Positions 10,297 through 42,045 of a stretch of 64,000 nucleotides of DNA are shown here, piece by piece. The notes under the pieces are model-generated. The model worked only from the letters and a program-made list of their open reading frames with translations, was not told where the DNA came from and did not search any database. This DNA is from a virus. Positions within the stretch are counted from its first letter, which is position 1. Every line of letters starts with the position of its first letter. Location of the stretch: IMG/VR virus record IMGVR_UViG_3300030106_006091, positions 3,319 through 67,318 of that record. One strand, 5' to 3'. A program made the translations under genes and the position numbers.

Positions 10297-10674
10297 TTAT
10301 TCGTCATCAAACGCTGGTTCAACTGGCCACCAATTAGAGTGAGCAGGAACATTGTTCCGCTGTCTGATGATTTGCCAGCTACCAGTTGGATACTTGATCT
10401 TATATCCTGCTGCATCAAAGCTTGGATGTTTGATGTCCATCCATACTTTGGTCCAACGTTTGCCATTGTTAATGTCCCACACCGTGATAGGTGATGTGAA
10501 CACATTACATGTAGCCATTGACTCGAGCTCAACACTGTCGAGCGTCATGTCAAACCTACCGACATATCCGTTACCGAAGTCGTCTTCGATGATACCGAAC
10601 ATGCCACAGTTGAATGCTTGCCCCAACATGGTGGTTGAGACAAGCATTAGAAGTATTACTGAAGTTTCTTTCAT
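10297..10674 (-). CDS. Exported hypothetical protein
   Basis: A 125-residue protein with an N-terminal signal peptide (MKETSVILLMLVSTTMLGQAF, cleavage probably after GQA). Two cysteines follow in the mature part. The remainder looks like a small beta-rich domain with many Trp and Asp/Asn residues (VWDINNGKRWTKVWMDIKH), ending in an acidic tail. It would act in the periplasm or at the outer membrane. It overlaps the next upstream gene by four bases. No family recognised. Confidence 0.7.
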   Translation of the reverse strand: MKETSVILLMLVSTTMLGQAFNCGMFGIIEDDFGNGYVGRFDMTLDSVELESMATCNVFTSPITVWDINNGKRWTKVWMDIKHPSFDAAGYKIKYPTGSWQIIRQRNNVPAHSNWWPVEPAFDDE

Positions 10675-10886
10675 GATTCTGTTGAATTACAAATGTGAGA
10701 CCAGCTGGTGTGCTGCTCCATGATTTCTGTTAATTGCTTGATGACCTTCTGTCTGTCTGCAACCTCTTCCATTAGACGTTGACGTTCGTTCTGGGCTGCA
10801 TTGAGGATTGCCCATCTGTCCTGCTTCCATGTATTCCAACGATGTACGATTGGGTTGAGGACTTTGTTTTTCTTCTTGAGGTCCAT
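10671..10886 (-). CDS. Small basic coiled-coil protein
   Basis: A 71-residue protein with a Lys-rich start followed by a long helix (ERQRLMEEVADRQKVIKQLT). It sits between an exported protein and a small membrane protein in a row of short genes. Function unknown. Confidence 0.6.
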   Translation of the reverse strand: MDLKKKNKVLNPIVHRWNTWKQDRWAILNAAQNERQRLMEEVADRQKVIKQLTEIMEQHTSWSHICNSTES

Positions 10887-10888
10887 GA

Positions 10889-11083
10889 TTATTCTGAAAT
10901 GATTTCGTCCAAGTATACATCAGTGTGCACACCAGACAGTTCTAACTCCAGCTCATTGATGCGAGACTGAAGTTGCATGATGAAAAGGTCTGACTCAGTG
11001 GTTGTGTCATGAGCCAAGACAAAGTAAAAGGCACCAACAAGTATAATGTTGAATGCCATTGAGGCAAGGAGGATATAAAACAT
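10889..11083 (-). CDS. Small membrane protein with coiled-coil tail
   Basis: A 64-residue protein. Residues 2-24 form one transmembrane helix (FYILLASMAFNIILVGAFYF), followed by a charged coiled-coil stretch (LQSRINELELELSG). This topology resembles small inner-membrane spanin subunits or tethered regulators, but it lies far from the amidase and holin, so the role is open. Confidence 0.6.
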   Translation of the reverse strand: MFYILLASMAFNIILVGAFYFVLAHDTTTESDLFIMQLQSRINELELELSGVHTDVYLDEIISE

Positions 11084-11098
11084 GATGATGGGATTAAA

Positions 11099-11124
11099 GG
11101 GGAGTGGCTATCACCTCACCCCCC
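11099..11124 (-). terminator. Intrinsic terminator overlapping the stop codon
   Basis: On the minus strand GGGGGGTG pairs with CACTCCCC (one G-T) around a 10-nt loop and is followed by TTTAATC. The 5' half of the stem includes the final glycine codons and the stop region of the gene at 11116-11349. Confidence 0.6.
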
Positions 11125-11349
11125 ATGATTTAATTCATAGTGCTCACGAAGACGTCTCTGGACCTCTTCTTCGACGTTGACCTCGTGCTCTTGGCACAAG
11201 TGTACTTGGTGGCGAGCATCATCGAGACGCTCTTCTAAATCCTTGACCTTGTTCTTCAGAGAAGCATTCTCCATTGACAAGACAAGGATGGTGTCAGTGA
11301 GCTCCCTGGTTGAGAGCTGCATTGAGTTAACAAGACAAAACTGTGACAT
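11116..11349 (-). CDS. Small coiled-coil hypothetical protein
   Basis: A 77-residue protein, possibly starting at the internal ATG at 11319 (MQLSTREL). Almost all of it is one heptad-patterned helix (LVLSMENASLKNKVKDLEER). The three short genes here (10671-11349) share this build. Function unknown. Confidence 0.55.
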   Translation of the reverse strand: MSQFCLVNSMQLSTRELTDTILVLSMENASLKNKVKDLEERLDDARHQVHLCQEHEVNVEEEVQRRLREHYELNHGG

Positions 11350-11471
11350 GTGTCATAAACTTGTATATGCCATGGTTGGCATGGTGAGAAAAAGTGGTAG
11401 AAAGTGGTGCATACGACCTGGTAGTCATACGCACGCACTTTGTACCTGAGATGGTTGGCCGAGCGTAGACC

Positions 11472-11690
11472 TCAAAGGTCTAGCTGCTCGAAGCGACGCT
11501 CCAGTCGTGCGAAGAGACCATAGTCTCCTTCCTCGACGAGCAAGCGGTCACGCCATTTGGCGTCCGCGGCAAGGACGTCTACGTCCGCGTAGAAAGAGAT
11601 GGGCTCGTCCCCATCGATTGCAAGCGCCAGCTTGTCTGGCTTGTCAAGGTCTTGCATAACAATGCAATTCTTCTTAGTGTACTTCGCCAT
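11472..11690 (-). CDS. Small hypothetical protein at the strand switch
   Basis: A 72-residue protein with a beta-type start (KKNCIVMQDLDKPDKLALAI) and a helical, charged end. It is the first minus-strand gene at the divergence point, so it should be transcribed first on that strand. A 7-bp hairpin (TAGACCT-CAA-AGGTCTA, 11466-11482) straddles its stop codon and has no T tract. No Bacteroidota-type promoter is visible in front of it. Confidence 0.6.
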   Translation of the reverse strand: MAKYTKKNCIVMQDLDKPDKLALAIDGDEPISFYADVDVLAADAKWRDRLLVEEGDYGLFARLERRFEQLDL

Positions 11691-11801
11691 GGCGATTTAA
11701 GTATTAAAGTGTGAAACAATGTACTCCCGGGGGCTGTCGAAGCCCGCCACATAGCTGGGGTCTTTGAATGTGTAGGTTCACGCTCTCAAAAAATTTTTTG
11801 T

Positions 11802-11809
11802 TATATTTG
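11802..11809 (+). promoter_or_regulatory. Promoter box for the envelope operon (leaderless type)
   Basis: TATATTTG matches the Bacteroidota -7 box TAnnTTTG exactly and is followed by four bases (CGCC) and the ATG at 11814. The -33 region is weak (GGTTCA). An AAAAAATTTTTT tract lies just upstream. This is the only clear promoter in the divergent gap at 11691-11813. Confidence 0.7.
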
Positions 11810-11813
11810 CGCC

Positions 11814-11951
11814 ATGGCAAAGAAGCAAACACCATTCGACATGTACATCAAAAAAAATGTATCAAGACCCGGAGTCCATGGTAAAACTAAATCGTCTAAG
11901 CACAAGTCTTCTAAGCTTTACAAGAAGGCATATCGCGGCCAAGGCCGTTAG
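11814..11951 (+). CDS. 45-residue highly basic protein
   Basis: Starting four bases after a perfect TAnnTTTG box, this short frame encodes MAKKQTPFDMYIKKN, then SRPGVHGKTKSSKHKSSK, ending YKKAYRGQGR. About a third of the residues are Lys or Arg. I recall similar short proteins ending RGQGR in other Bacteroidota phages, but cannot verify it. It overlaps the next gene's start in another frame. A nucleic-acid-binding role is likely from charge alone. Confidence 0.7.
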   Translation: MAKKQTPFDMYIKKNVSRPGVHGKTKSSKHKSSKLYKKAYRGQGR

Positions 11952-14346
11952 TCTAATAGCACTACTACTAGTATCGCTAACTGCTCTATCCCAGAGCTGG
12001 ATAAACCTTGAACTGCAAGCAGATCAGTATGGGGGTGAAACAACTTGGGAGATAGTACAGGGCGATAGTGTATTTGCATCAGGGGGACCTTACGGGTCTT
12101 TCGAGTACGTACAACAACTCATACCCCTACCACCAGGTGAGTACAACCTAGTTGTCAATGATGCATTTGGGGATGGCATCTGTTGTGACTTCGGGGAGGG
12201 CTGGTTTGGTATAGAGAACACATGTAGCGTATCACAATCAGTGTACGACTTTGCAACTGCGCAAGTAGTAGTGTATTTTGATTTGCTACCATGCCCCCCA
12301 CCTATAGCTGGATGCAGTGATGAGACAGCAAACAACTACAACCCAGATGCATACTTCGATGATACCTGCATCTACGATGTAACATTTAGACTAGACCTCA
12401 ACGGACCACACCCACCACAGATAGTTACCCCAGAAGTAAACTCTAACGTAAACGGGTACTGCGGGTCGTGTTGGGCCATGAGTGATGACGATCAAGATGG
12501 GGTGTGGGAGATAACAGCCCCCATGCCAGAAGGGGAACATCTTTGGAAGTTCTCTGCAGACAATTGGGAGATACAGGAATTGCCAGTAGGCGTTTCTGAG
12601 TCTCCCTGTTTTTTGTTCGATGAGTTCGGGTATGTCAACAGAACCATAAACGTACAGGGTAACATGACACTCCCACCATTGTGTTGGGAAAGCTGTTTAC
12701 CATGCGGGGCCGTACCAGGCTGCACAAATCCAAACGCCAGCAACTGGAGTCCATGGGCAAACTTTGACAACGGGTCATGCACAGGCCTTGGTGCTGACTG
12801 TCAACCGTGGGAGACAGAGATTACCACTACACTTATCGCAGACAACTACCCCGAAGAAACAAACCTGAACGTATACAATATTACATCTGACGAAGAACTG
12901 CTAGATATATCTGTTGGGGACATACCACAGCTGGTCATTGGTGTGCCACTTGTGTTCTCTACATGTGCTACAGTTGGGGATGTTGTTGAGGTAGAGATAG
13001 CTGACAGCTACGGTGACGGACTTGGGGCTTCTCAGTGGGGCGGACAGGACGGAGATCTGTTTGTTGTGGCATGCGGAGATACTCTATGGGACCTGCCTGA
13101 AGCTGACTTTGGGTACAGCACTTTCTCAGAGTTTACCACACCTACATGTGTCACTGTCGAAGACGTAGTAGGATGTGGAGACCCAGACTACCTAGAGTAC
13201 AACCCAGATGCGACCATACAACTAGATGTGCTGTGTGAAACTCTTGCAGTATACGGTTGCACAGATACACTGTACTTCAACTACGACTCTCTTGCCAATG
13301 CAGAAGACGCAATAGATTCCTGCTTCTATACGCTCACTATTACAGACGGTATCGGAGATGGGTGGTTTGGGAGCTGGCTTGGTGTCTACCAGAACGGGTG
13401 GGCATCACCACAATACAAGATGGGGCCAAACGATGGGACAGAAGAAGTGTTCGATATATACCTGTCAGCTGAGGAGGAGATAGAGATGTTCTTCTTCACA
13501 ACCCCGCAGTCACAGAACCAAGTCAACCAGTGCGGGTTCACGCTTGTTGGCCCGACTGGGGACACACTGATAGATATCTCACAGTGGAGCATTACCCCGT
13601 TCCCCAACACATACAGTGTAACTCCATACTGCGGCAATACATGTATACCATTTGCATACGGATGCACTGATGAGACTGCACAGAACTATGATGCATACGC
13701 AAACACAGAGAATGGTAGCTGCTACTACAACGCTGGGTGCACACAAGCAGGCTATCTAGAATATTACACCCAAGGGTACGAAGCTGATTACGACGACGGA
13801 TCATGTGAGACATTGGCTGTCTTTGGGTGCACAGATGAAGAAGCACTCAACTACGAGCCAGAGGCGAACGTTGACAACAACAGTTGTATAGCCGTAGTCG
13901 AGGGCTGCATGGACCCAGACGCATATAACTACAACGAAGACGCCAATACTTCTACGCAGTGTTTGTATGATGCAGGATGCATTACAGGACCAGGACAACC
14001 CTACTGGGCAAACGACAACTGCTACACGTGGGTTATAGAAGTTGACCCATACTGCTGTGAGGTGGGGTGGGATGCACCATGTATGGAGCTATATCAATAC
14101 TGCGGCAATCAAACATCTAGCGTAGACGTAGCCGTTCAGTCTTTGCTGCACTTCTTCCCTAATCCTACAGACGGGGAGATACGTGTGCAAGCACCCATAG
14201 GCACAGTCATTACAATTGTGGATGCTTCAGGCAGAAAGATAATAGAGACAGAAGACACTAGAATACATCTCCCATCTGCGGGTGTGTATGTAATCATGGC
14301 CAACTACAAAGGCCGAATCAAAAAAGAAACAGTAGTAAGGCAATGA
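11878..14346 (+). CDS. T9SS-exported repeat protein with C-terminal sorting domain
   Basis: A protein of about 822 residues. The start is uncertain (11857 or 11878, both inside the preceding short gene). A signal peptide (VSLIALLLVSLTALSQS) is followed by a beta-sandwich-type domain with a GDGICCDFGEGW loop, then eight or so copies of a Cys-bounded repeat of the form GCTD-x2-A-x-NY ... DNGSC, interrupted by domains with YGDGLGASQWGG and IGDGWFGSW loops that look calcium-binding. The last 75 residues (FFPNPTDGEIRV, VDASGRKII, LPSAGVYVI, KETVVRQ) are a type A T9SS sorting domain. In hosts this domain directs crossing of the outer membrane and anchoring to or release from the cell surface. So the phage places this protein outside the infected cell. 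The role is unknown; masking of receptors and adhesion are candidates. Confidence 0.82.
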   Translation: MVKLNRLSTSLLSFTRRHIAAKAVSLIALLLVSLTALSQSWINLELQADQYGGETTWEIVQGDSVFASGGPYGSFEYVQQLIPLPPGEYNLVVNDAFGDGICCDFGEGWFGIENTCSVSQSVYDFATAQVVVYFDLLPCPPPIAGCSDETANNYNPDAYFDDTCIYDVTFRLDLNGPHPPQIVTPEVNSNVNGYCGSCWAMSDDDQDGVWEITAPMPEGEHLWKFSADNWEIQELPVGVSESPCFLFDEFGYVNRTINVQGNMTLPPLCWESCLPCGAVPGCTNPNASNWSPWANFDNGSCTGLGADCQPWETEITTTLIADNYPEETNLNVYNITSDEELLDISVGDIPQLVIGVPLVFSTCATVGDVVEVEIADSYGDGLGASQWGGQDGDLFVVACGDTLWDLPEADFGYSTFSEFTTPTCVTVEDVVGCGDPDYLEYNPDATIQLDVLCETLAVYGCTDTLYFNYDSLANAEDAIDSCFYTLTITDGIGDGWFGSWLGVYQNGWASPQYKMGPNDGTEEVFDIYLSAEEEIEMFFFTTPQSQNQVNQCGFTLVGPTGDTLIDISQWSITPFPNTYSVTPYCGNTCIPFAYGCTDETAQNYDAYANTENGSCYYNAGCTQAGYLEYYTQGYEADYDDGSCETLAVFGCTDEEALNYEPEANVDNNSCIAVVEGCMDPDAYNYNEDANTSTQCLYDAGCITGPGQPYWANDNCYTWVIEVDPYCCEVGWDAPCMELYQYCGNQTSSVDVAVQSLLHFFPNPTDGEIRVQAPIGTVITIVDASGRKIIETEDTRIHLPSAGVYVIMANYKGRIKKETVVRQ
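12307..13962 (+). repeat. GCTD...DGSC Cys-bounded protein repeats
   Basis: Within the T9SS protein, copies of a repeat of about 22 residues start near 12307, 12717, 13170, 13252, 13657, 13732, 13824 and 13899. Each opens with GC(T/S/G)D or a close variant, has NY(N/D/E) in the middle and closes with a Cys. Three to four copies of the same repeat occur in the 2316-residue virion protein. Confidence 0.75.
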
Positions 14347-15386
14347 GATATTTAATCACACTTGTGCTTGTAGCACTTACCTTTAACACAAATGCCCAAG
14401 ATTTCTATAACAAAGTTCTTAGAAGAGCGACGTTCTATGCGGCGGCTAATGGAGGCAACTCGGTATCTGATCTTAACACATACTCTCTCTCTTCCGGATC
14501 ACTTACGACCGGGACTGTTGAAACGCCCTTTGACTATTCTATTACGCTTGGGGTCCGCAAAATTGCGCGTTTTGGCTATGAGAACAGAGCTAATGTGTTT
14601 TACAATGGCACTGAAAACACGTACGGGGACGCAGCAACCGTTGGAAAGCGAAACGGATTCGAGTTTCTCGCAGAGGCAGATTGGAGAAGACAGCAAGGAA
14701 GAAACTTCCTAGACCAAGACTACTTCGTACGTTACGTAGCAGACCACTGGATAGTCAAAGCAGAGTACCTGGCAGACGGGTTTGCTGACATACGATACTT
14801 CGAAGGGTCACAAAGACTGCGTACTCAGATTGGGAAGAAGCTGTCACTCAACGTTGGGATAGTCCAACGCATATCTGAGCCGTACGGGTACGACCCCCTG
14901 ACAGAGCTCATGCTAGACGACAACCAAATACACTATACGTCGTTAGCATTAGAAGAAGGATATACAATAGATGTTAATACAGGTGAGTTTTTTGACCCAA
15001 ACGGGGAGCTTGTAGCGAACGACCCGGCTGTCTGGGAACAGGTGGTGATACCACAGGTGCTCACCGACTACGTAGCCAGAAAACGCTCTGAACTCCCCAG
15101 CCAGTGGGTGCACTCAGCAGTTATAGGCTACGACTTCTACCACTACGACAAAGACTTTTGGCTACACTCATGGGGTAACTTGATGCCCTTTCACCTAGAC
15201 ACAGATGATAACTATTCTTACCACCGCTTTGTTAATAGCTCACAGTGGGTAGATTATTCTGTAGGACTTATATTTGGAGTAAAGTTCAACAAAAGCTTTG
15301 GGGTATTCCTAGAGGGCAAGTACAATAGGTACTGGGATAGAGAGTGGCATGACTTCTCCGTTGGGTTGAACTACATACTTATTTAA
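14343..15386 (+). CDS. Outer-membrane beta-barrel protein
   Basis: A 347-residue protein with a signal peptide (MRYLITLVLVALTFNTNAQ). Alternating aromatic and polar strands follow (ITLGVRKIARFGYENRANVF, DQDYFVRYVADHWIVKAEYL, YSVGLIFGVKFNKSFGVFLEG). It ends in a strand with an aromatic/hydrophobic terminus (FSVGLNYILI), as expected of a Bam-inserted barrel. Its ATG overlaps the stop of the T9SS protein gene (ATGA), so the two are translationally linked. It does not carry the PorP/SprF motifs that would make it a T9SS partner. Possible roles are receptor masking, superinfection exclusion or holding the secreted partner. Confidence 0.75.
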   Translation: MRYLITLVLVALTFNTNAQDFYNKVLRRATFYAAANGGNSVSDLNTYSLSSGSLTTGTVETPFDYSITLGVRKIARFGYENRANVFYNGTENTYGDAATVGKRNGFEFLAEADWRRQQGRNFLDQDYFVRYVADHWIVKAEYLADGFADIRYFEGSQRLRTQIGKKLSLNVGIVQRISEPYGYDPLTELMLDDNQIHYTSLALEEGYTIDVNTGEFFDPNGELVANDPAVWEQVVIPQVLTDYVARKRSELPSQWVHSAVIGYDFYHYDKDFWLHSWGNLMPFHLDTDDNYSYHRFVNSSQWVDYSVGLIFGVKFNKSFGVFLEGKYNRYWDREWHDFSVGLNYILI

Positions 15387-15387
15387 A

Positions 15388-15672
15388 ATGGCACAGCAAA
15401 TAGGAGAGGACACTAAGGTAACTCTAGACCTGAAGACTATAGGAATGGCTGTTGCAGGTATTGGGACAATCGTAGCAATGTGGTTTGCATTGCAGGCGGA
15501 CATAGCAGAAGCAAAGGAACTCCCAGAGCCAGCAGCCCCCGAGATTACACGCATGGAGTTTGACATGAAAGACCAACTGGTCAGACAAACTATCATGAGT
15601 ACACAAGAAGATGTGACTGAGATCAAACAAGACATCAAGCGCATCGAAGAAAAAATAGACCAACTAAAATGA
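15388..15672 (+). CDS. Membrane-anchored coiled-coil protein (spanin-like?)
   Basis: A 94-residue protein. One transmembrane helix (IGMAVAGIGTIVAMWFALQA, residues 18-37) is followed by a Pro/Ala linker and a coiled coil (VTEIKQDIKRIEEKIDQLK). The topology fits an inner-membrane spanin or a tether in the periplasm. It is encoded one base after the barrel gene. Confidence 0.7.
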   Translation: MAQQIGEDTKVTLDLKTIGMAVAGIGTIVAMWFALQADIAEAKELPEPAAPEITRMEFDMKDQLVRQTIMSTQEDVTEIKQDIKRIEEKIDQLK

Positions 15673-15675
15673 GAC

Positions 15676-16023
15676 ATGAGAACTGCACTAATTGCTGCAC
15701 TATTCTCTGTGCTATTCTTGGCACCTGTCCCTTCAAAGCCTGATCTAGGCGGGATATGTGTTGTAGAATTTAACGCAGATTTTAACAAGCAGAATAGCGT
15801 ACCCTGGATAGAGAAACTATCAGAGTGTAACGCTGTACGGGTAAACATCTCGGCTGAGCCAGAGATGCAAATGGAACACAAGATTGTTGTTGTACCAACG
15901 ATCATTGTATTCAATGAGGGCGAAGAAGTTGAACGCTTCCAAGCCAATATCATGATGACTATGGAGACCACCAAGAACGAAGTTCAAGAGGTGGTTGATG
16001 AAATTATTTTGAGCGACTTCTAA
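15676..16023 (+). CDS. Periplasmic thioredoxin-fold protein without CxxC
   Basis: A 115-residue protein with a signal sequence (MRTALIAALFSVLFLAPVPS). The mature part follows the thioredoxin plan: VVEFNADFN strand, an active-site position, and a cis-proline strand (KIVVVPTIIVFNEGEEVERF). Where WCGPC is expected the sequence is NKQNSVPW, so both active-site cysteines are missing and it cannot be a disulfide oxidoreductase. It may serve as a binding scaffold, as thioredoxin does for T7 polymerase, but in the periplasm. It is the last gene of the envelope operon. Confidence 0.75.
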   Translation: MRTALIAALFSVLFLAPVPSKPDLGGICVVEFNADFNKQNSVPWIEKLSECNAVRVNISAEPEMQMEHKIVVVPTIIVFNEGEEVERFQANIMMTMETTKNEVQEVVDEIILSDF

Positions 16024-16038
16024 GTTGTTGTATATTCG
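16008..16038 (+). promoter_or_regulatory. Bacteroidota-type promoter
   Basis: TTTG (16008-16011), a 19-bp spacer, then TATATTCG (16031-16038), one base off TAnnTTTG. It overlaps the end of the thioredoxin-like gene. Transcription would begin near 16043, upstream of a long untranslated stretch. Confidence 0.65.
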
Positions 16039-16280
16039 CACCGAAACCGCTTCCTAGCGACCGGCCCTGGGTAATCAAAAAGGGCCTAGACATCGGGTTA
16101 CAGTAGCTGTCACCATAGGCAGTGAACGTTGTCCCCGGTAGTTTCGCAAAGTGCGTTGGTATAAAACTCGGGTGGGAACCAGGCTATAGGCTGATAGAAA
16201 TGCCCCCACGTAGGCTTAAGACGGCGAGTGGAAGTCCAACTGCTAAACACAAAAACCAAGGGGGTAAATTGTATCCAGTC
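16039..16280 (+). other. About 240-nt untranslated leader or small RNA
   Basis: A frame upstream of the amidase extends back to 16122, but the amidase domain needs only residues from 16281, and this extension has no protein-like character. The DNA holds a GGCCCT/AGGGCC hairpin (about 16062-16086) and a GTGGG/CCCAC hairpin (about 16171-16208) with an inner GGCTATAGGC. With a promoter just upstream it is probably a structured 5' leader or a separate small RNA. I do not recognise a known riboswitch. Confidence 0.45.
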
Positions 16281-16700
16281 ATGAGAGAAATCAACCGCAT
16301 CATCATCCACTGCTCCGCAACGAGAGAGGGACAAGACATAGACGCAGCTACAATCAAGAAGTGGCATACCGAAGACCGAGGATGGTCGGATATCGGGTAT
16401 CACTATTGTATCAAGCTTGACGGTACTTTAGAGGCTGGAAGACCGCTCGACCGTGCAGGGGCACACGTCAAAGGACACAACTCCGATTCAATAGGTATCT
16501 GCTACATAGGGGGCGTAGAGGAAGACGGTAAGACACCGAAGGATACAATGACCCCAGCCCAGGAGCACGCAATGCGTGAGCTGATCTTCTCGCTGCGTAT
16601 GGTATGGGACAAAGAGTTGACCCTACACGGGCACAACGAATATGCCAGCAAAGCATGCCCTAGCTTCAAAGTCAGCGAAAAATTCGCAGATATCTTGTAA
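16281..16700 (+). CDS. N-acetylmuramoyl-L-alanine amidase (endolysin, T7 lysozyme type)
   Basis: A 139-residue zinc amidase that cuts the bond between muramic acid and the peptide in peptidoglycan. Visible parts: IIIHCSAT with zinc ligand H10, the GWSDIGYHY motif with Tyr near 40, GAHVKGHNSDSIGICYIGG, and GHNEYASKACPSF giving zinc ligands H118 and C126 plus the lysine two before the Cys. The length matches T7 lysozyme (about 150). I chose the ATG at 16281 (MREINR) because the domain starts there. A holin candidate lies far away at 41.6 kb. Confidence 0.9.
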   Translation: MREINRIIIHCSATREGQDIDAATIKKWHTEDRGWSDIGYHYCIKLDGTLEAGRPLDRAGAHVKGHNSDSIGICYIGGVEEDGKTPKDTMTPAQEHAMRELIFSLRMVWDKELTLHGHNEYASKACPSFKVSEKFADIL

Positions 16701-16753: not shown

Positions 16754-17032
16754 ATGGCAAGTATTAATTTCAAACCAACGCGGGACTGGGTAGTGCTCCC
16801 GATGCAACGTAAGGACAAGACCGATAGCGGTATCGAACTTGTTGGGGGTGCAGAAAACTCACTACGTACTAACATTCTTAAGGTAATCGCTGCCGGACCA
16901 CAATGTCAGATGGTCAAGGAGGGCGACACAGTTATGATTCACCCTAACTCAGAAGGTCTTGTGATCAATCTGGATGAGGGTGAGTTTGTCATGGTTAACG
17001 AATTCACTATCTGCGGTGTCATACCGGACTGA
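16754..17032 (+). CDS. GroES-like co-chaperonin
   Basis: A 92-residue protein with the GroES plan. FKPTRDWVVLPMQRKDKTDSGIEL at the start corresponds to the first strands and mobile loop, and NILKVIAAGPQCQMVKEGDTVMI to the central barrel strands, followed by FVMVNEFTICGVIPD. T4 gp31 shows that a phage co-chaperonin can replace GroES so that host GroEL folds the capsid protein; no GroEL is encoded here, so it must use the host's. The gene has its own strong promoter and overlaps the next gene's start. Confidence 0.78.
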   Translation: MASINFKPTRDWVVLPMQRKDKTDSGIELVGGAENSLRTNILKVIAAGPQCQMVKEGDTVMIHPNSEGLVINLDEGEFVMVNEFTICGVIPD

Positions 17033-32276: not shown

Positions 32277-35200
32277 ATGGCTAATTTTATAATATACGGC
32301 ACAAGGCTAGGAGATAGAAAGATGCCCACACTTCATGTTGTGGGCACTTATGCTAGTGGGGGGTTTGACCTAATTAACCTTGACCACAGCACCCAAACCG
32401 CCCCGCTCATGACCCAACACGGCTCGGTGGAGTCAACAGGTCTCACAGGCAGTATAGGTCCTGATTTAATTACAGGTACTACAGACAAAGACAACGCGAC
32501 AGAGCTGTTCACAGAAGACGGTAACTTTGAGCTGGTAGGAATCCAGATAACTAAAGTTGGTGTAATAAAAAGAAACGGAGTTCAGTCCAGTATTGTTTCA
32601 GGTACCAGTCTTTCGAACTACGTAGAGAAGACCGAGCATAGGTATCTGCAAAATGGGCACCTCATGATGAAGGTCTACTTCAATGAGAATAACAGTAACC
32701 TTGGAGATGTAGAAGACGCCTTCTTCGTATCTGGGTGCGCTTTGCTGCAGGCAGGGTCCCAAGCTTTTCTAACAGACGGACCAAAGAAAAGAAAAGTACC
32801 GTTTGCTCTTACACTACCATTCCGGCCTAAAGGCGAGAACGTAGCACCATCACAAAACCCAACCATAAACCTAAACCAGTTTATATATGGGTCAGGGAAC
32901 GACAACAACTTCGGCACAGAGGTTAATGTGCAGAACATGGGTCTGCCCGACACAGATGCAACAGGTTCTATAACTTGGAATACTGTTAGAACTCAAGCCT
33001 GGAACTTTGGGCAGTTTGAATCAGGCACTCTATCTAACAATGTTGGAAGCTTGCCTTTAGATCCAAGATTCTATCCCCACTTCGGTGATGCAATGATAAC
33101 TGGGGGCAGTAAAATAGAAATTAAAAACAGGAGGATTGACACAGCCAGAAGTCTTGGGGATCTGTATACAGAGGGATCTTCACAAAAGAACCCGACTCCT
33201 GATGATGGATTAGACAACTTCGTATACATTGGTGACGTAAACCTGCACTCAGCAAGTGGAAGTTCCTTTGATCTTAGAGAGCTTCACCAGTTTGGGAGTC
33301 AGGCAATAGAAACAGCGGGGTCATTCAAAGAGACCTGGGGAAGGTTTAGGGGTTCTTGGGTAAACGGACCTGATGAAACTGGATCAGGCGATAGATATAC
33401 TCGAGACGGGAGTTTCGGTGGCTTTCCTCAAGTGGGATCTGGAGAGGCGTGTAACGAAGCAAGGATGTTCGTCACCCACAGTGAGGGTATAGGATTCCCA
33501 CACCTAGGACCAGGAAGCTTCAACCCTGGGGGTAAAGCCCACTTTTACTCTGATGGTAAATGCAGAAACCCTTACTACCCACAAAGAAACACGGCATTTA
33601 GTCACTATATAACCTTCTACAAAATAGCTGGGCACGGCACTAGTGTTCCAGAAGGGGCATACCTGCCGGACACTATCACTAACCTGCCTCTAAGCGACGC
33701 AGGCCAGTACCCATTTTACGTAGCAGAAAGCTTCAGAAAAAGTGTGCGCAGCACACAAGGCATTCAGGATGCAGATGCGGAGCAAATTGCAGCTATGGTT
33801 CCTGACGGCACAGATTGGTGGCAATCGCCACAGTCCGCAAGCTCTCCAGTAAGAGCAGTTTTGAGGGGGGCAATGAGCTGGCAGGACTACATATCCAACG
33901 CTTTTAAATGCACAGCTAACCCGGCAAACGATACCGCACTTCAGGTTATAGGGTCCTTAACATCTGCGGCTTCAGATGGGAGTATGCTCGTTGATAAATA
34001 TGACATACTATTCTCTGGGTGCGTACCTACACACAATAACGCCAACGCGGCGTACTCGTCAGCTTTGAATCAAGGTTTAGGAATAACACAAGAAGCTGAC
34101 CTTCTGGATGCGTTTGGGGTCACCATAGCGGGAGGCGACGCGGATGCCATAGATGAAAGCACCAAGATATACTTGTACACAGTATTCATGTACTCGGATC
34201 ACCCTCAGCCTAGGATATATCCAGACGTTCAAGATCCTCCAGGTTATGACCTGTCTAACACAGACGTGTTTACTGGGATTAACGCATTCACGCATAGTAA
34301 CATTACAGGTACTTATGATGTTGAGCACGTACAGCAGATGGTAAACCCAGACGGGATCGTATCAGCTTCTAATCTAATTGTCAACTGGGCTTCAGATAAG
34401 ATTACTTTCAACTGTGCAGACAGAAACTCATCTGACTCAAATGTTACCACTTTCGTCCAGAACTCAGACATCGCACTGTTTGCAAACAACAATGGCTGTG
34501 ACATAGATTCGTATACGAGATGTGGGTGTCAAAGCGCTGTAGAAGAGTTTGCTCTAGGAGAGCTCATAAACTTTACTTCGTTTGAAGGTGACCAAAATAG
34601 ATTCGAGACTATCATAACGTACCCTAGACCGGTTACTACTAATCAGCTCGACACGATATCAGCACCAAGTGCGTTCCCTTCTATTCTGTACATCAACTCT
34701 TACTTTGCTCCGATAGACACTAGCACTGCGATAGATTCAACATTTGCTTCTGACTATCTAGAGAACAGCACCCCAACTAACGTTACATTTGACACAGCAG
34801 GTGGAGCTACACATACACATAGTTTTTCTGACCTAGGAATATCTAATTACGGGGCACTGCCATACATAACTGAGTTTAACGACAACTCAACAGATACAAA
34901 TACGTTCACGTACTTGTACATGCCGGGCAGAGAGCAATTTGAGATAGAAGAGGAGAACGCATACTTTGTGCATGATGATTCTGGGGAGGCTCAAATATTC
35001 ATGACTGTTCAAGGAGCGGGGTCAGACGAAAATGGTCCGAGTAATGATATACCTCACAGACAGATGCTTTTGTTCCAAGCACCAAGTCTTGATGTAGCAG
35101 GAACAAGCTTTAAGAGAGCACACTCGGATTTGTCATTCAGCCAAAACTGGGAAACCCAACCAGTAGAAGCGAGCTATCTCTCATTGGGCACAAACAGTGA

Positions 35201-38200
35201 TTGTGATACAAATGATGACGACACCCCCAAAAGACGGATACGTAAGTTTGTAAATGTCACTGGTCCTAGCCGAGACTCGGGCGCTGAAGATGATGGAGAT
35301 ACAGGAGATGGTGGTCAACATGATGATGACAAATTGGGCTGTACAGACGAGACCGCAATCAACTTCGATCCCACGGCAACCACCGACGATGGCAGCTGTG
35401 TATTCTGTGATACAGTAGCAGGAGAGGGCGAGGCAGCATTGCTGCAAAATGTTGACCCATTCTTCTACATACCGTTTGCTTATTATGACTCAATAGTTGC
35501 TTCTCTTCAAGGCAGACTCCAAGGAACTCTTGACAGAACAACCGGCGCCTCTACAGGTGTGAGCTATGGTTCAGCATACGAAGTACCGTTTCCTAGTGGA
35601 CAAGCAGGATCATTGACCTATGACTGGTGGGCAGGAAATGCATTCAATGCGTTCAATACTAGAGGCCCCAATGCAGATCAGACTCTGGGTGCGCTAAATA
35701 CACCAAGTACGCTACCCACTGACTACACTGCTTCTCCATTTAACAACACTGCTAATTCTGCGTTTACATACTTCAGAGCCAAGTCTAGCGACACTCTGAG
35801 CGCAGCTTCAATAGCGCAGTATGGAACACAGTGGCAGTTCGGGGAAGACCTGACTGCTAACACAGCATTCATGGAAGGTGTTGAGAGTTTAATCGAACAG
35901 ATTGCAACTGAGAATAGCAGCAACCTCCAAATTAGAATATACAGATATTCTGACTGGGAGACATACGTAGCTACAGGAGACAGCGCCACCATACCTAATG
36001 AAGACCAAGGTAACAATGGATGGTACCTAGACGATTACGGAAATGGCACATTCCCAATAGGAGCTCAGCCTAACGTGTACGTAGATAACGCTGGTGATTA
36101 CTCAGCACTTAACCTGAACAGTGTTACCCCAATAGCTACAAGGAGCAACGAGAATAATGATGCTAGCTGGAACTTTAAATTTGATTTTAGGAACTACGAC
36201 TCTCTCAGCACAACTGTTCCTACTGACATAGGATTAGAAGCCGGAGAGCAATACGTGGTGGTGTGGAGGTTGTTCCCAAAGAACAGCTGCACCAACGATA
36301 GAAAATTCTACTACTGGGCATCTAACTTCTTCGTTAAATACTGCGAGTGTACTAACCCTGACTCTGAGAATGTTGGGGCAGGTAATCCCAACAACGCTAC
36401 TCCAGCACCTGTTGTCCCGTACACTCAATACCCTTGGAGTGGTGAGTCGCTGTTCCCAGGAGCTAACAATCCTCACGATGAAACTAGTTCAGGGTTGGGC
36501 ATACCTGGAGCCATATGGCCTGGAAATTACTGCAGCATCAGTAACTCAGAAGTTGGCCTTAACAATACAAGACTGTGTGCGGACAGACAACCCGACGCTT
36601 CAACAGACTGTGATGGTTTTGCTTCTTGGTGTTTGTCAAACATACGCCCACTGTGTCAATATACAGAGGATGGGGTACCGTTTGGTACAGTATCCTTTGA
36701 GGTGCTAATAGACGGATTCTTTACACAGAGTGAACTTGATACATGGTCATTGGAACCCTTCGCCCCACCGTACCAGAACGCGAATACCACTGTAGACTTC
36801 TACTGGCAGATAACAGTATCGTTTAACGGTAGTGTGGATACAATAGTTCCATCTCACGTATATAATGCATCAACTAACACTTGGTCTCTCAATCCTACTG
36901 TCAGTGTTACACAACTTGCTGATCCAGGTGACAGCTCGTTCTACGGGCAAATAGCATCCATCTCATTTAATGATATGGAATGGGATGACTCTGATATCAA
37001 TGCTATTGGGATGCAACTTCAGATGAATGTAGAACTGGAGTACCTAGGAATGGTGGATACTGCTGCTGGTCAGGGGAATGGGGGTACGCCTATATATGGC
37101 TATCCTGACTATGTTGTAGGAGCAGACGGTGTAACTTCTGTTGAGGCATGTCCTACCTACAGCATACCGTACACAGCAGACTTTGAAGATTGCGTAGAAC
37201 TGGTCTCGGGGTGCACTGATCCATTGGCAACCAACTTCAATGAACTAGCTTCAGTTGATGATGGATCTTGTGAGTTTACCGACTGCACTGAACTTTACGA
37301 CGCGTTCCGCAACTCCATATTCATTACGAACGTGGTCACCACGAACGACAACCTTGTGTGCGAATCCGTAGATGTAGAAGGTGTGACTGTAAATCAATAC
37401 ACACCGCAGTACCAAGGCACAATGACAATAACTGTGCAAGACTTTTCTCTAGGTGTACTGGGAGTAGGAGGCACAGCATCAAATTTCGTAATAGGAGTAG
37501 TGCGTATGCAGAGCGGAACAGTTAACAGCTTGCAACCATTCCTTGACGCATACGACAACAATGCTGCAACAATACAAGCCCTGGAACCAGGGGCAGCATT
37601 TACAGTTCCTGGGACCGGCAACAACGCATGTTTCGTGATGCCCACAGACGTTACTACTTCCGTAACCTCTGTAGCAGGTCAAGTAGATCCTGTAGGTACG
37701 CAAGGCCTACAAACAGTAACAACGGTACCAGAGTTTGCAATATTCAACACGCTGGTGGGTGACCAACAGGCAGGAGGATTGCCTGCTGGTCAGTACCTGA
37801 TATTTGTGATACCTCACATTAACCTGGACTTGTACGAAGATGACGAATCCGGTATTGGTGAGTGCACTAGTCTGTTCTTGTCCTTCACTGACGAGATGAC
37901 ATTTGCAGGCATTGACAATACACTCGTAGATGTAAGTTGTCCTGAACCCTGCAATCAGTTTACTAACCCGGCGGATTGCCCTGACGCAATTCCAGGATGC
38001 ACAGATCCTACAGCACAGAACTACAATGAAAGCGCTACATTCGATGACGGCTCATGCGAGTTCTGTGTAGACTGTGACCCATGTGACCTATACCCACTTG
38101 ACCCAGAGTGCATAGAATGTGATAAAGGAGAAGAAACAGATATACTCTCTAGAGGTGCATTGGGTCTGGGAGCAAGGATAAGAGAATGTGACGGTGAAAC

Positions 38201-39227
38201 GGACGAATGCTGTCCTGATCCAAATGCATGTAACTATTCATCAAACTGTGAGGCAGGCAACTTTGATACCTGTGAATACGATTGTACAGACGGGGGAGAA
38301 GACTGCGATGAGACTCAAGGAGACTGTGATCCAGAACCACCATGCCCAGACCCAGCTAATCCAGTTTGTGATGGAGAACCTACGGGTAGCTGTGTGGACG
38401 ACGGTGACTGCCCATGTGTAGATGACCTATGTAACCAGGACTGCATCTTTGAAGGCAACTGTGAAGAAGATACTGACACTGACGATGACGGTCCTATTGA
38501 CACGTTCAACACTACCACGGTTATCTGCGTCCCTGATGTAAGCATACCGATCCCTAACATTACAATTGACGGCGAAGCCCCTACAGATATAGCACATGCA
38601 GCAGCGATATGCGATACAACTAAGGGGGACAAGATGCTGATGAAAATAAAGACTGGTGTAGAGTATGACGACACTGACCTGCTCAAGCTGTCACTGATTA
38701 ACTACATATTCACCAGTGCTGCAAAACAACAGCTGGACTGCATATTTGACTGTAACAACTATGAGACTAAAGCTAAGTCTGGAGGAAAAGCTAGAGGCTT
38801 TACAACCAGGCTCAGAGGAGCGGTCAACTGCAATGCCAGATGGGAGGCAGGCAAGAAACAATTCTTCGCAGGAAGCAGCACGTTCAAAAAGAATACTACC
38901 GTCAAGTACATGAGAATACAAAACGGTAAACTGGTTACCAGCTTCTTTACAGCAAAGAGAGATTGGAGACCTGGAATGGACCTGCCAAATACTACACCTA
39001 ACCAGGAGCTCAGAACCTGGGAGCCCTGTGTCAATCTAAAATACCAGGAGGGCACAAACCCAGAAAACTACTGGCAAACCTTCTGGGAGTTCATTACAAG
39101 ATTCTGTTCCTCATGTGAGGTAATAACAGGAAATGGAGAGACAGAAGAAACACCAATAGCTATAAAACAAACAAGAAACTTCGGCACATCATTTACAGAT
39201 GAGTTCGGGAATGAAATAACATTCTAA
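32277..39227 (+). CDS. Giant virion protein with host-type repeats (2316 residues)
   Basis: The largest protein in the window. It has no signal peptide, so it is not a secreted host-type protein but probably a tail appendage or fibre. The first 1000 residues are beta-rich. GCTD-type repeats lie near residues 1020-1041, 1643-1665 and 1905-1927, a looser one (CCPDPNACNYSS) near 1975, and a Cys/Asp-rich linker near 1940-2070. The C-terminal 220 residues are a separate mixed domain ending NEITF. The repeats match those in the phage's own T9SS-exported protein at 11.9-14.3 kb. Receptor contact at the host surface is the likeliest job; this is inference. Confidence 0.75.
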   Translation: MANFIIYGTRLGDRKMPTLHVVGTYASGGFDLINLDHSTQTAPLMTQHGSVESTGLTGSIGPDLITGTTDKDNATELFTEDGNFELVGIQITKVGVIKRNGVQSSIVSGTSLSNYVEKTEHRYLQNGHLMMKVYFNENNSNLGDVEDAFFVSGCALLQAGSQAFLTDGPKKRKVPFALTLPFRPKGENVAPSQNPTINLNQFIYGSGNDNNFGTEVNVQNMGLPDTDATGSITWNTVRTQAWNFGQFESGTLSNNVGSLPLDPRFYPHFGDAMITGGSKIEIKNRRIDTARSLGDLYTEGSSQKNPTPDDGLDNFVYIGDVNLHSASGSSFDLRELHQFGSQAIETAGSFKETWGRFRGSWVNGPDETGSGDRYTRDGSFGGFPQVGSGEACNEARMFVTHSEGIGFPHLGPGSFNPGGKAHFYSDGKCRNPYYPQRNTAFSHYITFYKIAGHGTSVPEGAYLPDTITNLPLSDAGQYPFYVAESFRKSVRSTQGIQDADAEQIAAMVPDGTDWWQSPQSASSPVRAVLRGAMSWQDYISNAFKCTANPANDTALQVIGSLTSAASDGSMLVDKYDILFSGCVPTHNNANAAYSSALNQGLGITQEADLLDAFGVTIAGGDADAIDESTKIYLYTVFMYSDHPQPRIYPDVQDPPGYDLSNTDVFTGINAFTHSNITGTYDVEHVQQMVNPDGIVSASNLIVNWASDKITFNCADRNSSDSNVTTFVQNSDIALFANNNGCDIDSYTRCGCQSAVEEFALGELINFTSFEGDQNRFETIITYPRPVTTNQLDTISAPSAFPSILYINSYFAPIDTSTAIDSTFASDYLENSTPTNVTFDTAGGATHTHSFSDLGISNYGALPYITEFNDNSTDTNTFTYLYMPGREQFEIEEENAYFVHDDSGEAQIFMTVQGAGSDENGPSNDIPHRQMLLFQAPSLDVAGTSFKRAHSDLSFSQNWETQPVEASYLSLGTNSDCDTNDDDTPKRRIRKFVNVTGPSRDSGAEDDGDTGDGGQHDDDKLGCTDETAINFDPTATTDDGSCVFCDTVAGEGEAALLQNVDPFFYIPFAYYDSIVASLQGRLQGTLDRTTGASTGVSYGSAYEVPFPSGQAGSLTYDWWAGNAFNAFNTRGPNADQTLGALNTPSTLPTDYTASPFNNTANSAFTYFRAKSSDTLSAASIAQYGTQWQFGEDLTANTAFMEGVESLIEQIATENSSNLQIRIYRYSDWETYVATGDSATIPNEDQGNNGWYLDDYGNGTFPIGAQPNVYVDNAGDYSALNLNSVTPIATRSNENNDASWNFKFDFRNYDSLSTTVPTDIGLEAGEQYVVVWRLFPKNSCTNDRKFYYWASNFFVKYCECTNPDSENVGAGNPNNATPAPVVPYTQYPWSGESLFPGANNPHDETSSGLGIPGAIWPGNYCSISNSEVGLNNTRLCADRQPDASTDCDGFASWCLSNIRPLCQYTEDGVPFGTVSFEVLIDGFFTQSELDTWSLEPFAPPYQNANTTVDFYWQITVSFNGSVDTIVPSHVYNASTNTWSLNPTVSVTQLADPGDSSFYGQIASISFNDMEWDDSDINAIGMQLQMNVELEYLGMVDTAAGQGNGGTPIYGYPDYVVGADGVTSVEACPTYSIPYTADFEDCVELVSGCTDPLATNFNELASVDDGSCEFTDCTELYDAFRNSIFITNVVTTNDNLVCESVDVEGVTVNQYTPQYQGTMTITVQDFSLGVLGVGGTASNFVIGVVRMQSGTVNSLQPFLDAYDNNAATIQALEPGAAFTVPGTGNNACFVMPTDVTTSVTSVAGQVDPVGTQGLQTVTTVPEFAIFNTLVGDQQAGGLPAGQYLIFVIPHINLDLYEDDESGIGECTSLFLSFTDEMTFAGIDNTLVDVSCPEPCNQFTNPADCPDAIPGCTDPTAQNYNESATFDDGSCEFCVDCDPCDLYPLDPECIECDKGEETDILSRGALGLGARIRECDGETDECCPDPNACNYSSNCEAGNFDTCEYDCTDGGEDCDETQGDCDPEPPCPDPANPVCDGEPTGSCVDDGDCPCVDDLCNQDCIFEGNCEEDTDTDDDGPIDTFNTTTVICVPDVSIPIPNITIDGEAPTDIAHAAAICDTTKGDKMLMKIKTGVEYDDTDLLKLSLINYIFTSAAKQQLDCIFDCNNYETKAKSGGKARGFTTRLRGAVNCNARWEAGKKQFFAGSSTFKKNTTVKYMRIQNGKLVTSFFTAKRDWRPGMDLPNTTPNQELRTWEPCVNLKYQEGTNPENYWQTFWEFITRFCSSCEVITGNGETEETPIAIKQTRNFGTSFTDEFGNEITF

Positions 39228-41226: not shown

Positions 41227-41602
41227 CACAAGACTGATTCTACAGTCTAAAAACCTTTTTTCCAACTCGCTCAACCAGAGGGTTGACAAGGCTTTTCCTA
41301 TTACGGCGGAAGTACTCAAGAGAGTAAAGTCCATCACAACGACATCGAGCGGTTCAGCCACGACTCTGCTCACTGTCAGTGAGTACGGAGTAGACAAAGA
41401 TGTCTTTCTCTTTATACGTAACCGGGCAACAGCAAAGGCTAAGTACCTCTATATAATCATAGGCTCTCAGCAGATTATGAGGTTGGCGCCCGGCCAATAC
41501 TCTATACTCCCATGGAGAACAGAGAGTGGGGATGACCTCAAAATATACGGCAATGACTCCAACGGTATTAACGTGGAGTACCTCGTAGGAACTATGACGT
41601 AA
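41213..41602 (+). CDS. Small beta-rich structural protein
   Basis: A 129-residue protein with strands (KYLYIIIGSQQIMRLAPGQY, then LPWRTESGDDLKIYGND) like those of small decoration or fibre-tip proteins. The 130-residue protein at 45937 has a similar end pattern (FIPVKGGVGLRVTSSD), so the two may be related. Its stop overlaps the holin-candidate start. Confidence 0.65.
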   Translation: MATINTRLILQSKNLFSNSLNQRVDKAFPITAEVLKRVKSITTTSSGSATTLLTVSEYGVDKDVFLFIRNRATAKAKYLYIIIGSQQIMRLAPGQYSILPWRTESGDDLKIYGNDSNGINVEYLVGTMT

Positions 41603-42045
41603 TGGGAAAGAAGAAGATAAAAGATACCGGCCTTGGCAAATGGTTGGCGGAAAAGGCACCTAGCGTACTTGGTACAGTAGGTGACCTTCTCCCTGACCAA
41701 GGGGCTCTTGGTGTCGTAAAGAATCTCTTGGACAAAGAACCAGGGATTGACCCAGCTGAGGCGAAAGCCAAGATAGATGCTGAGATAGCATTCCAGAATA
41801 ACGTCACTGAGCGTTGGAAAGCGGATATGGGAAGTGACGTAAAGCTGGCTAAGCTGATACGTCCAGTCACATTGATAGCCTTGATGGGCATGTTCATGAT
41901 CACTATGATCTTTGACAGCCTTGACAACTGGCCATTCAATGTAAAGGACAGCTACATAGATCTGTTGCAAGTCCTGATGTTGACTGCATTTGGTGCATAC
42001 TTCGCAGGTCGTACCATAGAAAAGAGTCGCAAACCTAACACATGA
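41602..42045 (+). CDS. Holin candidate
   Basis: A 147-residue protein. A basic and amphipathic N-terminal half (GLGKWLAEKAPSVLGTVGDL) is followed by two transmembrane helices (PVTLIALMGMFMITMIFDSL and LLQVLMLTAFGAYFAGRTI) and a basic tail (EKSRKPNT). This matches the build of a broad class of phage holins that open the inner membrane for the endolysin. The amidase lies 25 kb upstream, so the lysis genes are split. Confidence 0.7.
   Translation: MGKKKIKDTGLGKWLAEKAPSVLGTVGDLLPDQGALGVVKNLLDKEPGIDPAEAKAKIDAEIAFQNNVTERWKADMGSDVKLAKLIRPVTLIALMGMFMITMIFDSLDNWPFNVKDSYIDLLQVLMLTAFGAYFAGRTIEKSRKPNT

What the first reader, a model, noticed from the sequence alone, without database searches (positions are those of the whole stretch)
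11802..16023. Phage operon that rebuilds the host cell envelope
Five plus-strand genes behind one exact promoter box, each touching or overlapping the next, encode a tiny basic protein, a T9SS-exported repeat protein, an outer-membrane barrel, an inner-membrane coiled coil and a periplasmic thioredoxin fold with no catalytic Cys. Together they would place material on the surface, in the outer membrane, in the periplasm and in the inner membrane. That coverage suggests one trans-envelope assembly, perhaps for receptor masking, superinfection exclusion or the surface state of infected cells. I know of no described phage system of this composition. Function is inference; the targeting signals are visible.
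Basis: partly seen in the sequence, partly recalled or inferred. Interest (0 to 1): 0.88.

Follow-up and report, generated by a model that had tools for sequence, protein, structure and literature searches.

The report
Phage cassette coating infected Bacteroidota cells
Marine viruses of Bacteroidota bacteria from at least three unrelated virus families share a four-gene cassette that would push a protein with exchangeable ends onto the surface of the infected cell, next to a virus-made outer-membrane barrel, an inner-membrane anchor and a periplasmic partner, most likely to change how other viruses bind that cell.

Summary
The genes are real and conserved together. The window is a Crassvirales phage (73.8 kb IMG/VR record). 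Four genes recur in other marine phages: T9SS-exported protein, outer-membrane barrel, inner-membrane helix protein and Trx-fold protein without CxxC. Barrel searches gave 113 loci (over 560 hits before the cap). All four genes were called in 88, always on one strand, 83 in this order. Carriers belong to mutually exclusive capsid lineages: Crassvirales, elemo/Cellulophaga-type podoviruses and Immutovirus-like myoviruses. Barrel and inner-membrane families were absent from sampled Bacteroidia genomes (0/395 and 0/198). The exported protein is modular: a stable C-terminal half ending in a type A T9SS signal (33/33), and an N-terminal half swapped between close relatives and shared across phage lineages, whose first domain occurs in host T9SS proteins. 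Best reading: a mobile phage module that displays an exchangeable binding head on infected cells, probably for superinfection exclusion; this function is inferred. Main rival: a lysis role (lysis genes within two genes in 34 of 76 testable loci). Phage-encoded T9SS cargo was described in 2020; I found no description of the barrel, anchor and Trx partners. Corrections: likely start 11878 (822 aa); the tiny ORF is not part of the cassette.

The parts
11802..11809 (+). TATATTTG, exact match to the Bacteroidota -7 box TAnnTTTG; putative promoter
   Evidence: Conserved with the preceding T-run in L005 and L006; the pattern is not enriched in the window (43 found, 36 expected), so weak evidence alone
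11814..11951 (+). Small basic ORF (45 aa); conserved neighbour in crAss-like relatives, not part of the mobile cassette
   Evidence: 75-76% identical in L005 and L006; about 0.9 kb from the cargo gene in L020, L026 and others; in-frame 3-nt gap in the alignment
11878..14346 (+). T9SS type A cargo, 822 aa (829 aa from the non-conserved ATG 11857): hydrophobic N-terminus, exchangeable head with a host-type beta domain and a CBM48/CBM20-like fold, Cys-rich GC[TM]D modules, conserved Cys module, CTD
   Evidence: TIGR04183 in 33/33 C-termini; CTD fold 8glk/7pq4 and CBM fold 1z0n; head swapping
13900..14343 (+). C-terminal part of the cargo: Cys module (C..AGC....Y....C..W.I..D.YCC...WD..C...Y.YC) followed by the CTD
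   Evidence: Alignment A6, 33 sequences, 24 invariant columns
14343..15386 (+). Outer-membrane beta-barrel, 347 aa, predicted 12 strands
   Evidence: AF2 pLDDT 77; Foldseek NanC E 3.4e-7; 57-sequence alignment; no Pfam, PHROG or NCBIfam match
15388..15672 (+). Inner-membrane protein, 94 aa: one TM segment (about 17-36) and an amphipathic C-terminal helix; topology inferred N-in/C-out
   Evidence: 18 invariant columns in 41 sequences; hydropathy and heptad register; best PHROG phrog_1009, unknown function, E 4.6e-5
15676..16023 (+). Thioredoxin-fold protein, 115 aa, hydrophobic N-terminus (putative signal peptide), no CxxC, cis-Pro kept
   Evidence: Pfam Thioredoxin E 8.8e-4; family profile against PDB thioredoxin E 4.9e-9; CxxC in 0 of 39
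16281..16700 (+). Neighbour: endolysin (Amidase_2), about 139 aa from the inner ATG; adjacent lysis gene, not part of the cassette
   Evidence: Pfam Amidase_2 1.1e-13; phrog_822 1.1e-55

Best explanation
A mobile, phage-specific surface-display cassette. The phage makes a Cys-rich protein that the host Sec and type IX systems should export to the cell surface. It also makes an outer-membrane barrel, an inner-membrane protein with a helical C-terminal part, and a redox-inactive Trx-fold protein. I propose that these three form a trans-envelope partner that carries or anchors the cargo and couples it to the inner membrane, much as SprF carries SprB in gliding bacteria but with non-homologous parts. 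The displayed N-terminal head is exchangeable, is built of host-type surface domains including a carbohydrate-binding-like fold, and is traded between unrelated phages. Most likely it occupies or masks surface receptors of the infected cell and so excludes competing or sibling phages. Shown: gene content, order, conservation, capsid lineages, the T9SS signal, predicted barrel fold, Trx homology without CxxC, head swapping. Inferred: localisation, complex formation, carrier role, topology, and superinfection exclusion.
For: Conserved unit: 83 of 88 complete loci in one order, all on one strand. Carriers have mutually exclusive capsid genes: of 50 long contigs, 7 have strong crAss MCP matches and 33 have strong matches to the elemo/Cellulophaga-type structural protein, with no strong overlap. 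L171 is a 155 kb contig with the Immutovirus-like order SSB-recA-exonuclease-helicase. Barrel and inner-membrane families absent from sampled cells (with a positive control for the barrel). Type A T9SS signal in 33/33. Head swapping: for pairs with barrel identity 90-97%, the N-half median is 35% and the C-terminal 215 aa 80%; the same head type occurs in crAss-like and podovirus loci. The first head domain occurs in 26 of 80 Bacteroidia genomes, and two of the host proteins inspected end in T9SS-like CTDs. Some carriers have a second cargo with a type B signal (CHU_C 7.8e-15; TIGR04131 just below cut-off). Flavobacterial phage receptors are thought to lie in the gliding/T9SS surface machinery (PMC7345892).
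Against: No experiment, no predicted complex and no expression data. The divergent L071 clade has barrel, inner-membrane and Trx genes without this cargo nearby, so the trio may not exist to serve it. Cargo C-terminus and barrel identities correlate (0.78, against 0.40 for the N-half), but physical adjacency alone could give this. Lysis genes lie within two genes in 34 of 76 testable loci. Type A cargo is normally handled by host PorV and needs no dedicated carrier (general knowledge, not tested here).
Confidence: 0.5

Rival explanations
1. Outer-membrane lysis module: the 94-aa protein acts like an i-spanin and the barrel replaces the outer-membrane partner, bridging or fusing the membranes after the endolysin has acted; the cargo is a passenger.
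For: Lysis genes (phrog_3427-type holin or amidases) within two genes of the cassette in 34 of 76 testable loci; amidase directly downstream in the window; endolysin genes next to it in Immutovirus-like loci; single-TM plus helix layout of the 94-aa protein and its high conservation; the trio exists without the cargo.
Against: Known spanins pair an inner-membrane protein with an outer-membrane lipoprotein, or are one lipoprotein with a TM (PMC6139136); none of the four is a recognised lipoprotein. 18 of 76 loci sit beside structural genes without lysis genes. A large swapped surface protein is not needed for lysis.
Confidence: 0.2
2. Host-benefit surface module: the cargo gives infected cells new adhesion or glycan binding (particles, polysaccharide, aggregation) during infection, raising yield or spread rather than excluding phages.
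For: CBM48/CBM20-like fold in the window's head; first head domain shared with host T9SS proteins; related isolate immuto carries a cohesin-domain T9SS cargo and an annotated C-type lectin gene at the same genomic position.
Against: No enzymatic domain found; discrete head swapping between close relatives looks like competition or recognition more than constant metabolism.
Confidence: 0.15
3. The cargo is a virion or post-lysis component, for example a decoy or partner of the tail, and not a lasting surface layer.
For: The large 2272-aa protein of the same phage carries three copies of the same GC[TM]D Cys module.
Against: T9SS CTD in all relatives examined and a hydrophobic N-terminus; the module is also in a T9SS type B cargo, so sharing it does not mark virion proteins.
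Confidence: 0.07
4. Co-transcribed but functionally unrelated envelope genes that happen to travel together.
For: Trio and cargo can be separated (L071 clade) or rearranged (5 of 88 loci).
Against: Same order and strand kept across capsid lineages whose flanking genes differ.
Confidence: 0.08

Closest known systems
Phage-encoded T9SS cargo proteins of 'Cryophage' (Bellas et al. 2020, PMC7468147)
   Same: Phage genes with T9SS type A sorting domains, highly variable between relatives; [quoted passage not shown]
   Different: Those cargoes are an endoglucanase, a GH39 and a PA14 protein; the passages read mention no partner barrel, inner-membrane or Trx genes and no cassette shared between phage lineages
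Immutovirus immuto T9SS island (Flavobacterium phage immuto, NC_055915 gp013-gp019)
   Same: Isolated phage; a cohesin-domain protein gp015 with a clear T9SS type A signal (44.8 bits) at the genomic position where related contigs carry the cassette
   Different: Different cargo; no barrel or 94-aa family member in the 26 kb searched
SprB adhesin with its carrier SprF (PorP/SprF family) of gliding Bacteroidota
   Same: T9SS-exported surface protein encoded with an outer-membrane barrel; a carrier/anchor role is the analogy (PMC12635249)
   Different: No TIGR03519 match, hhalign 17% over 21 columns, no cysteine in most barrels so no Cys-X-Cys tail, type A and not type B cargo
Two-component spanins (Rz/Rz1)
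   Same: Single N-terminal TM and helical second half of the 94-aa protein; often next to holin or endolysin
   Different: No lipoprotein partner; barrel, Trx and T9SS cargo are foreign to spanins
Phage-encoded outer-membrane proteins (Lom, phage PA-2 Lc porin, Cor, T5 Llp; from memory)
   Same: Phage genes that alter the host outer membrane; some exclude superinfection
   Different: Single genes; no T9SS cargo and no inner-membrane or periplasmic partners (recalled, not tested)

Membership tests
T9SS type A cargo | C-terminal type A sorting domain (TIGR04183/PF18962) with CTD fold | tested here: met
   33/33 relatives match TIGR04183, best 1.7e-14; window C-terminal piece 23.9 bits against cut-off 23; CTD fold 8glk and 7pq4, prob 1.00
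T9SS type A cargo | N-terminal Sec signal peptide | tested here: inconclusive
   Hydrophobic N-terminus ending ALSQS in the window; no signal-peptide predictor available
PorP/SprF carrier family | Match to TIGR03519 or profile similarity to PorP/SprF | tested here: not met
   No NCBIfam hit; hhalign probability 17%, 21 columns
PorP/SprF carrier family | Cys-X-Cys motif in the periplasmic C-tail (SprF and close homologues) | tested here: not met
   46 of 57 barrels have no Cys after residue 20 and 11 have one
PorP/SprF carrier family | Required for export or anchoring of a neighbouring cargo | not testable with these tools
   Needs a genetic experiment
Two-component spanin | Inner-membrane protein with N-terminal TM and periplasmic domain | tested here: inconclusive
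   One TM segment and an amphipathic second half; orientation inferred only
Two-component spanin | Outer-membrane lipoprotein partner | tested here: not met
   The outer-membrane partner here is a predicted barrel; no Cys in 46 of 57 barrels and no lipobox noticed in the Trx-fold protein (inspection)
Thioredoxin (redox enzyme) | CxxC active site | tested here: not met
   0 of 39 members
Thioredoxin fold | Sequence homology to thioredoxins and cis-Pro loop | tested here: met
   E 4.9e-9 against 2vim; P74 and T75 invariant
Crassvirales (the window's phage) | crAss-type major capsid protein | tested here: met
   phrog_11589 2.4e-83; about 29% identity over 99% of crAss-like MCPs

The most novel reading that the evidence does not exclude
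A phage-only trans-envelope display machine, built of parts unrelated to SprF or spanins, that anchors interchangeable recognition heads on the infected cell. Heads are traded between virus families and would set which phages can still adsorb, a surface-level specificity system among marine Bacteroidota phages.
Probability: 0.25. Interest if true: 0.87.

Novelty: new variant of a known kind. Interest (0 to 1): 0.72.

Why it matters
Phage cargo for the type IX system was known as scattered single genes. Here a four-gene unit, with two protein families that have no strong match in Pfam, PHROGs or NCBIfam and were not found in bacterial genomes, recurs in at least three capsid lineages of marine Bacteroidota phages and trades its exposed head between them. 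It suggests that infected marine Bacteroidota cells have a virus-dictated surface during infection, and gives a concrete module with which to test surface exclusion, phage-phage competition or a new route through the outer membrane at lysis.

Tried and rejected
Isolated phages: tblastn of barrel, 94-aa, tiny and cargo proteins against 50,697 phage records gave no match; the Trx-fold protein gave only weak thioredoxin-type hits. The divergent L071 barrel gave only chance-level hits. Low-complexity filtering may hide the cargo.

Cellular origin: genome-contig scans gave nothing for the barrel and four contigs for the cargo C-terminus. Three of these are phage-like contigs in MAGs that carry the cassette. 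The fourth, L199, looks like a chromosomal T9SS protein with only the Cys module.

SprF/PorP membership rejected. Redox function of the Trx protein rejected (no CxxC). Promoter-box enrichment not supported. The coordinate start 11857 was rejected in favour of 11878.

My first grouping of loci lumped some crAss-like contigs with podoviruses by single linkage; it was replaced by the capsid-family test. The 'crAss' and 'podo/other' labels come from that first grouping, so the cross-lineage head sharing was checked on a named contig: L016 and the window share a head (0.78) although L016's contig carries only the podovirus-type capsid gene.

The isolate behind the best viral structure match (A0A516LKJ4, TM 0.65, 20% identity) could not be identified.
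Full report
WHAT THE WINDOW IS. The window is part of a 73.8 kb IMG/VR virus record. Its major capsid protein at 27014-28471 matches the crAss-type family phrog_11589 at 2.4e-83 and is about 29% identical over 99% of its length to crAss-like capsid proteins. It is a Crassvirales phage, so its host should be in the Bacteroidota.

THE OBSERVATION. The five ORFs exist where stated and abut or overlap. The exported protein more likely starts at 11878 than at 11857, because only 11878 is conserved in L005 and L006. The promoter box is an exact TAnnTTTG and is conserved in two relatives, but the pattern is not enriched in the window (43 against 36 expected). The 45-aa ORF is conserved in crAss-like relatives only and can sit about 0.9 kb away. 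I treat it as a neighbour.

CONSERVATION. A scan of viral contigs with the barrel gave 70 loci and a profile scan gave 566 confirmed relatives, 80 of them kept. In the 113 loci with a called barrel ORF, the cargo family was called in 105, the 94-aa family in 96 and the Trx family in 94. Contig ends and overlapping ORFs lower these counts. Where all four were called (88 loci) they are on one strand in 88 and in the order cargo-barrel-94-Trx in 83, mostly overlapping or within a few nucleotides. Flanking genes differ from group to group. These loci were all found through the barrel, and IMG/VR is redundant, so the counts are not independent events.

UNRELATED CARRIERS. In 50 long contigs, 7 carry strong crAss capsid matches and 33 carry strong matches to the capsid-region structural protein of elemo/Cellulophaga-type podoviruses (phrog_13704), with no strong overlap; a few further contigs have weaker matches. 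L171 (155 kb contig) has the replication gene order of Flavobacterium phage immuto, a myovirus-type phage whose recombinase is 60% identical to that of L071. The cassette therefore moves between phage lineages, or is kept by distant ones. The barrel profile matched 0 of 395 Bacteroidia genomes and the 94-aa profile 0 of 198. The barrel profile does ring in the assemblies that hold phage-like contigs; the 94-aa search had no such control.

THE PROTEINS. The cargo ends in a type A T9SS signal in 33 of 33 relatives, and its model matches solved CTDs 8glk and 7pq4. Just before it lies a Cys module; the C-terminal alignment has 24 invariant columns. The window's head includes a region with a CBM48/CBM20-like fold (1z0n and others, prob 1.00; the overall model has pTM 0.42, so only local matches are used). 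The barrel model has 12 strands and resembles porins such as NanC. Its segment 74-104 is among the most conserved parts; by strand parity it would lie on the periplasmic side or plug the barrel (inference). The 94-aa protein has one TM segment and a conserved amphipathic half. The fourth protein is a thioredoxin homologue (E 4.9e-9) in which no member keeps CxxC while the cis-Pro loop is kept, so it is probably a binding module.

HEAD SWAPPING. Among pairs with barrel identity 90-97%, the N-terminal half of the cargo has median identity 35% while the C-terminal 215 residues have 80%. Conversely, heads of about 80% identity or more occur in loci whose barrels are only 64-68% identical. The window's own head type is shared with L016, whose contig carries the podovirus-type capsid gene. 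The first head domain occurs in 26 of 80 Bacteroidia genomes, and two of four host proteins examined end in T9SS-like CTDs. So the exposed part looks host-derived and exchangeable, while the trio is phage-specific. Cargo C-terminus and barrel identities correlate best (0.78), but physical adjacency alone could cause that.

CONTEXT. Lysis genes lie within two genes of the cassette in 34 of 76 testable loci; structural genes without lysis genes in 18. The divergent L071 clade has barrel, 94-aa and Trx genes without this cargo nearby. Some of its members carry other secreted proteins just upstream, including a cohesin-domain T9SS cargo; the isolate immuto has that island, without the barrel or 94-aa gene in the 26 kb searched. 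Some carriers have a second cargo with a type B signal beside the cassette.

MECHANISM. I favour a surface-display module: host T9SS exports the cargo, and the phage-made barrel with its inner-membrane and periplasmic partners carries or anchors it, as SprF does for SprB (PMC12635249). The barrel is not a PorP/SprF member: no TIGR03519 match, 17% hhalign probability over 21 columns, no Cys-X-Cys tail. Because flavobacterial phage receptors are thought to lie in the gliding/T9SS surface machinery (PMC7345892), superinfection exclusion or receptor masking is the likeliest purpose. The spanin-like lysis reading is the main rival: spanins need an outer-membrane lipoprotein (PMC6139136), which is absent here, but lysis genes are often adjacent.

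PRIOR ART. Phage-encoded T9SS cargo, highly variable, with superinfection exclusion suggested, was reported for Cryophage in 2020 (PMC7468147), and T9SS sorting domains near the head genes of gut phages in 2019 (PMC6949934). I found no description of the barrel, 94-aa and Trx partners in the library searched, which lacks most subscription papers and all preprints.

VERDICT. A real, widespread, mobile phage cassette with two protein families that lack strong matches in the libraries searched. Localisation is supported for the cargo and barrel by prediction; complex formation and purpose are unproven.

Noticed in passing
window 32409-39227: Large 2272-aa protein in the structural region carries three GCTD..DDGSC Cys modules of the kind found six times in the exported cargo (local identity 38-62%); virion-type and surface proteins share a domain.
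   Followed up: partly
L025:8391-9623 (-), also L010, L020, L021, L026, L027: Second T9SS cargo with a type B signal (CHU_C 7.8e-15) right after the cassette on the opposite strand, also with a GCTD module.
   Followed up: partly
L215 (NC_055915) 10527-16409; L208:2349-7937; L201: Immutovirus-type phages carry an island of secreted proteins after nrdA, including a cohesin-domain T9SS type A cargo (gp015); the isolate immuto would allow experiments.
   Followed up: partly
window 41602-42045: Holin family phrog_3427; its relatives sit directly upstream of the cassette in many podovirus-type loci, but here it lies 25 kb away.
   Followed up: partly
L196, L197, L198: Phage-like contigs binned into MAGs (one labelled Nitrosopelagicus, an archaeon) carry the cassette; likely mis-binning.
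   Followed up: yes
window 16754-17032: GroES-like 92-aa protein encoded by the phage between endolysin and terminase; conserved in crAss-like relatives. Name from sequence inspection only.
   Followed up: no
window 10297-11690 (-): Divergently transcribed small genes, including a 64-aa protein with an N-terminal TM and helical rest (10889-11083) and a 125-aa protein with a signal-peptide-like N-terminus; could be the true spanin-type genes of this phage.
   Followed up: no
L064:12566-13404 and many podovirus-type loci: Family of about 135-aa proteins in multiple tandem copies near the cassette (88 copies in 41 loci), no confident PHROG match.
   Followed up: no
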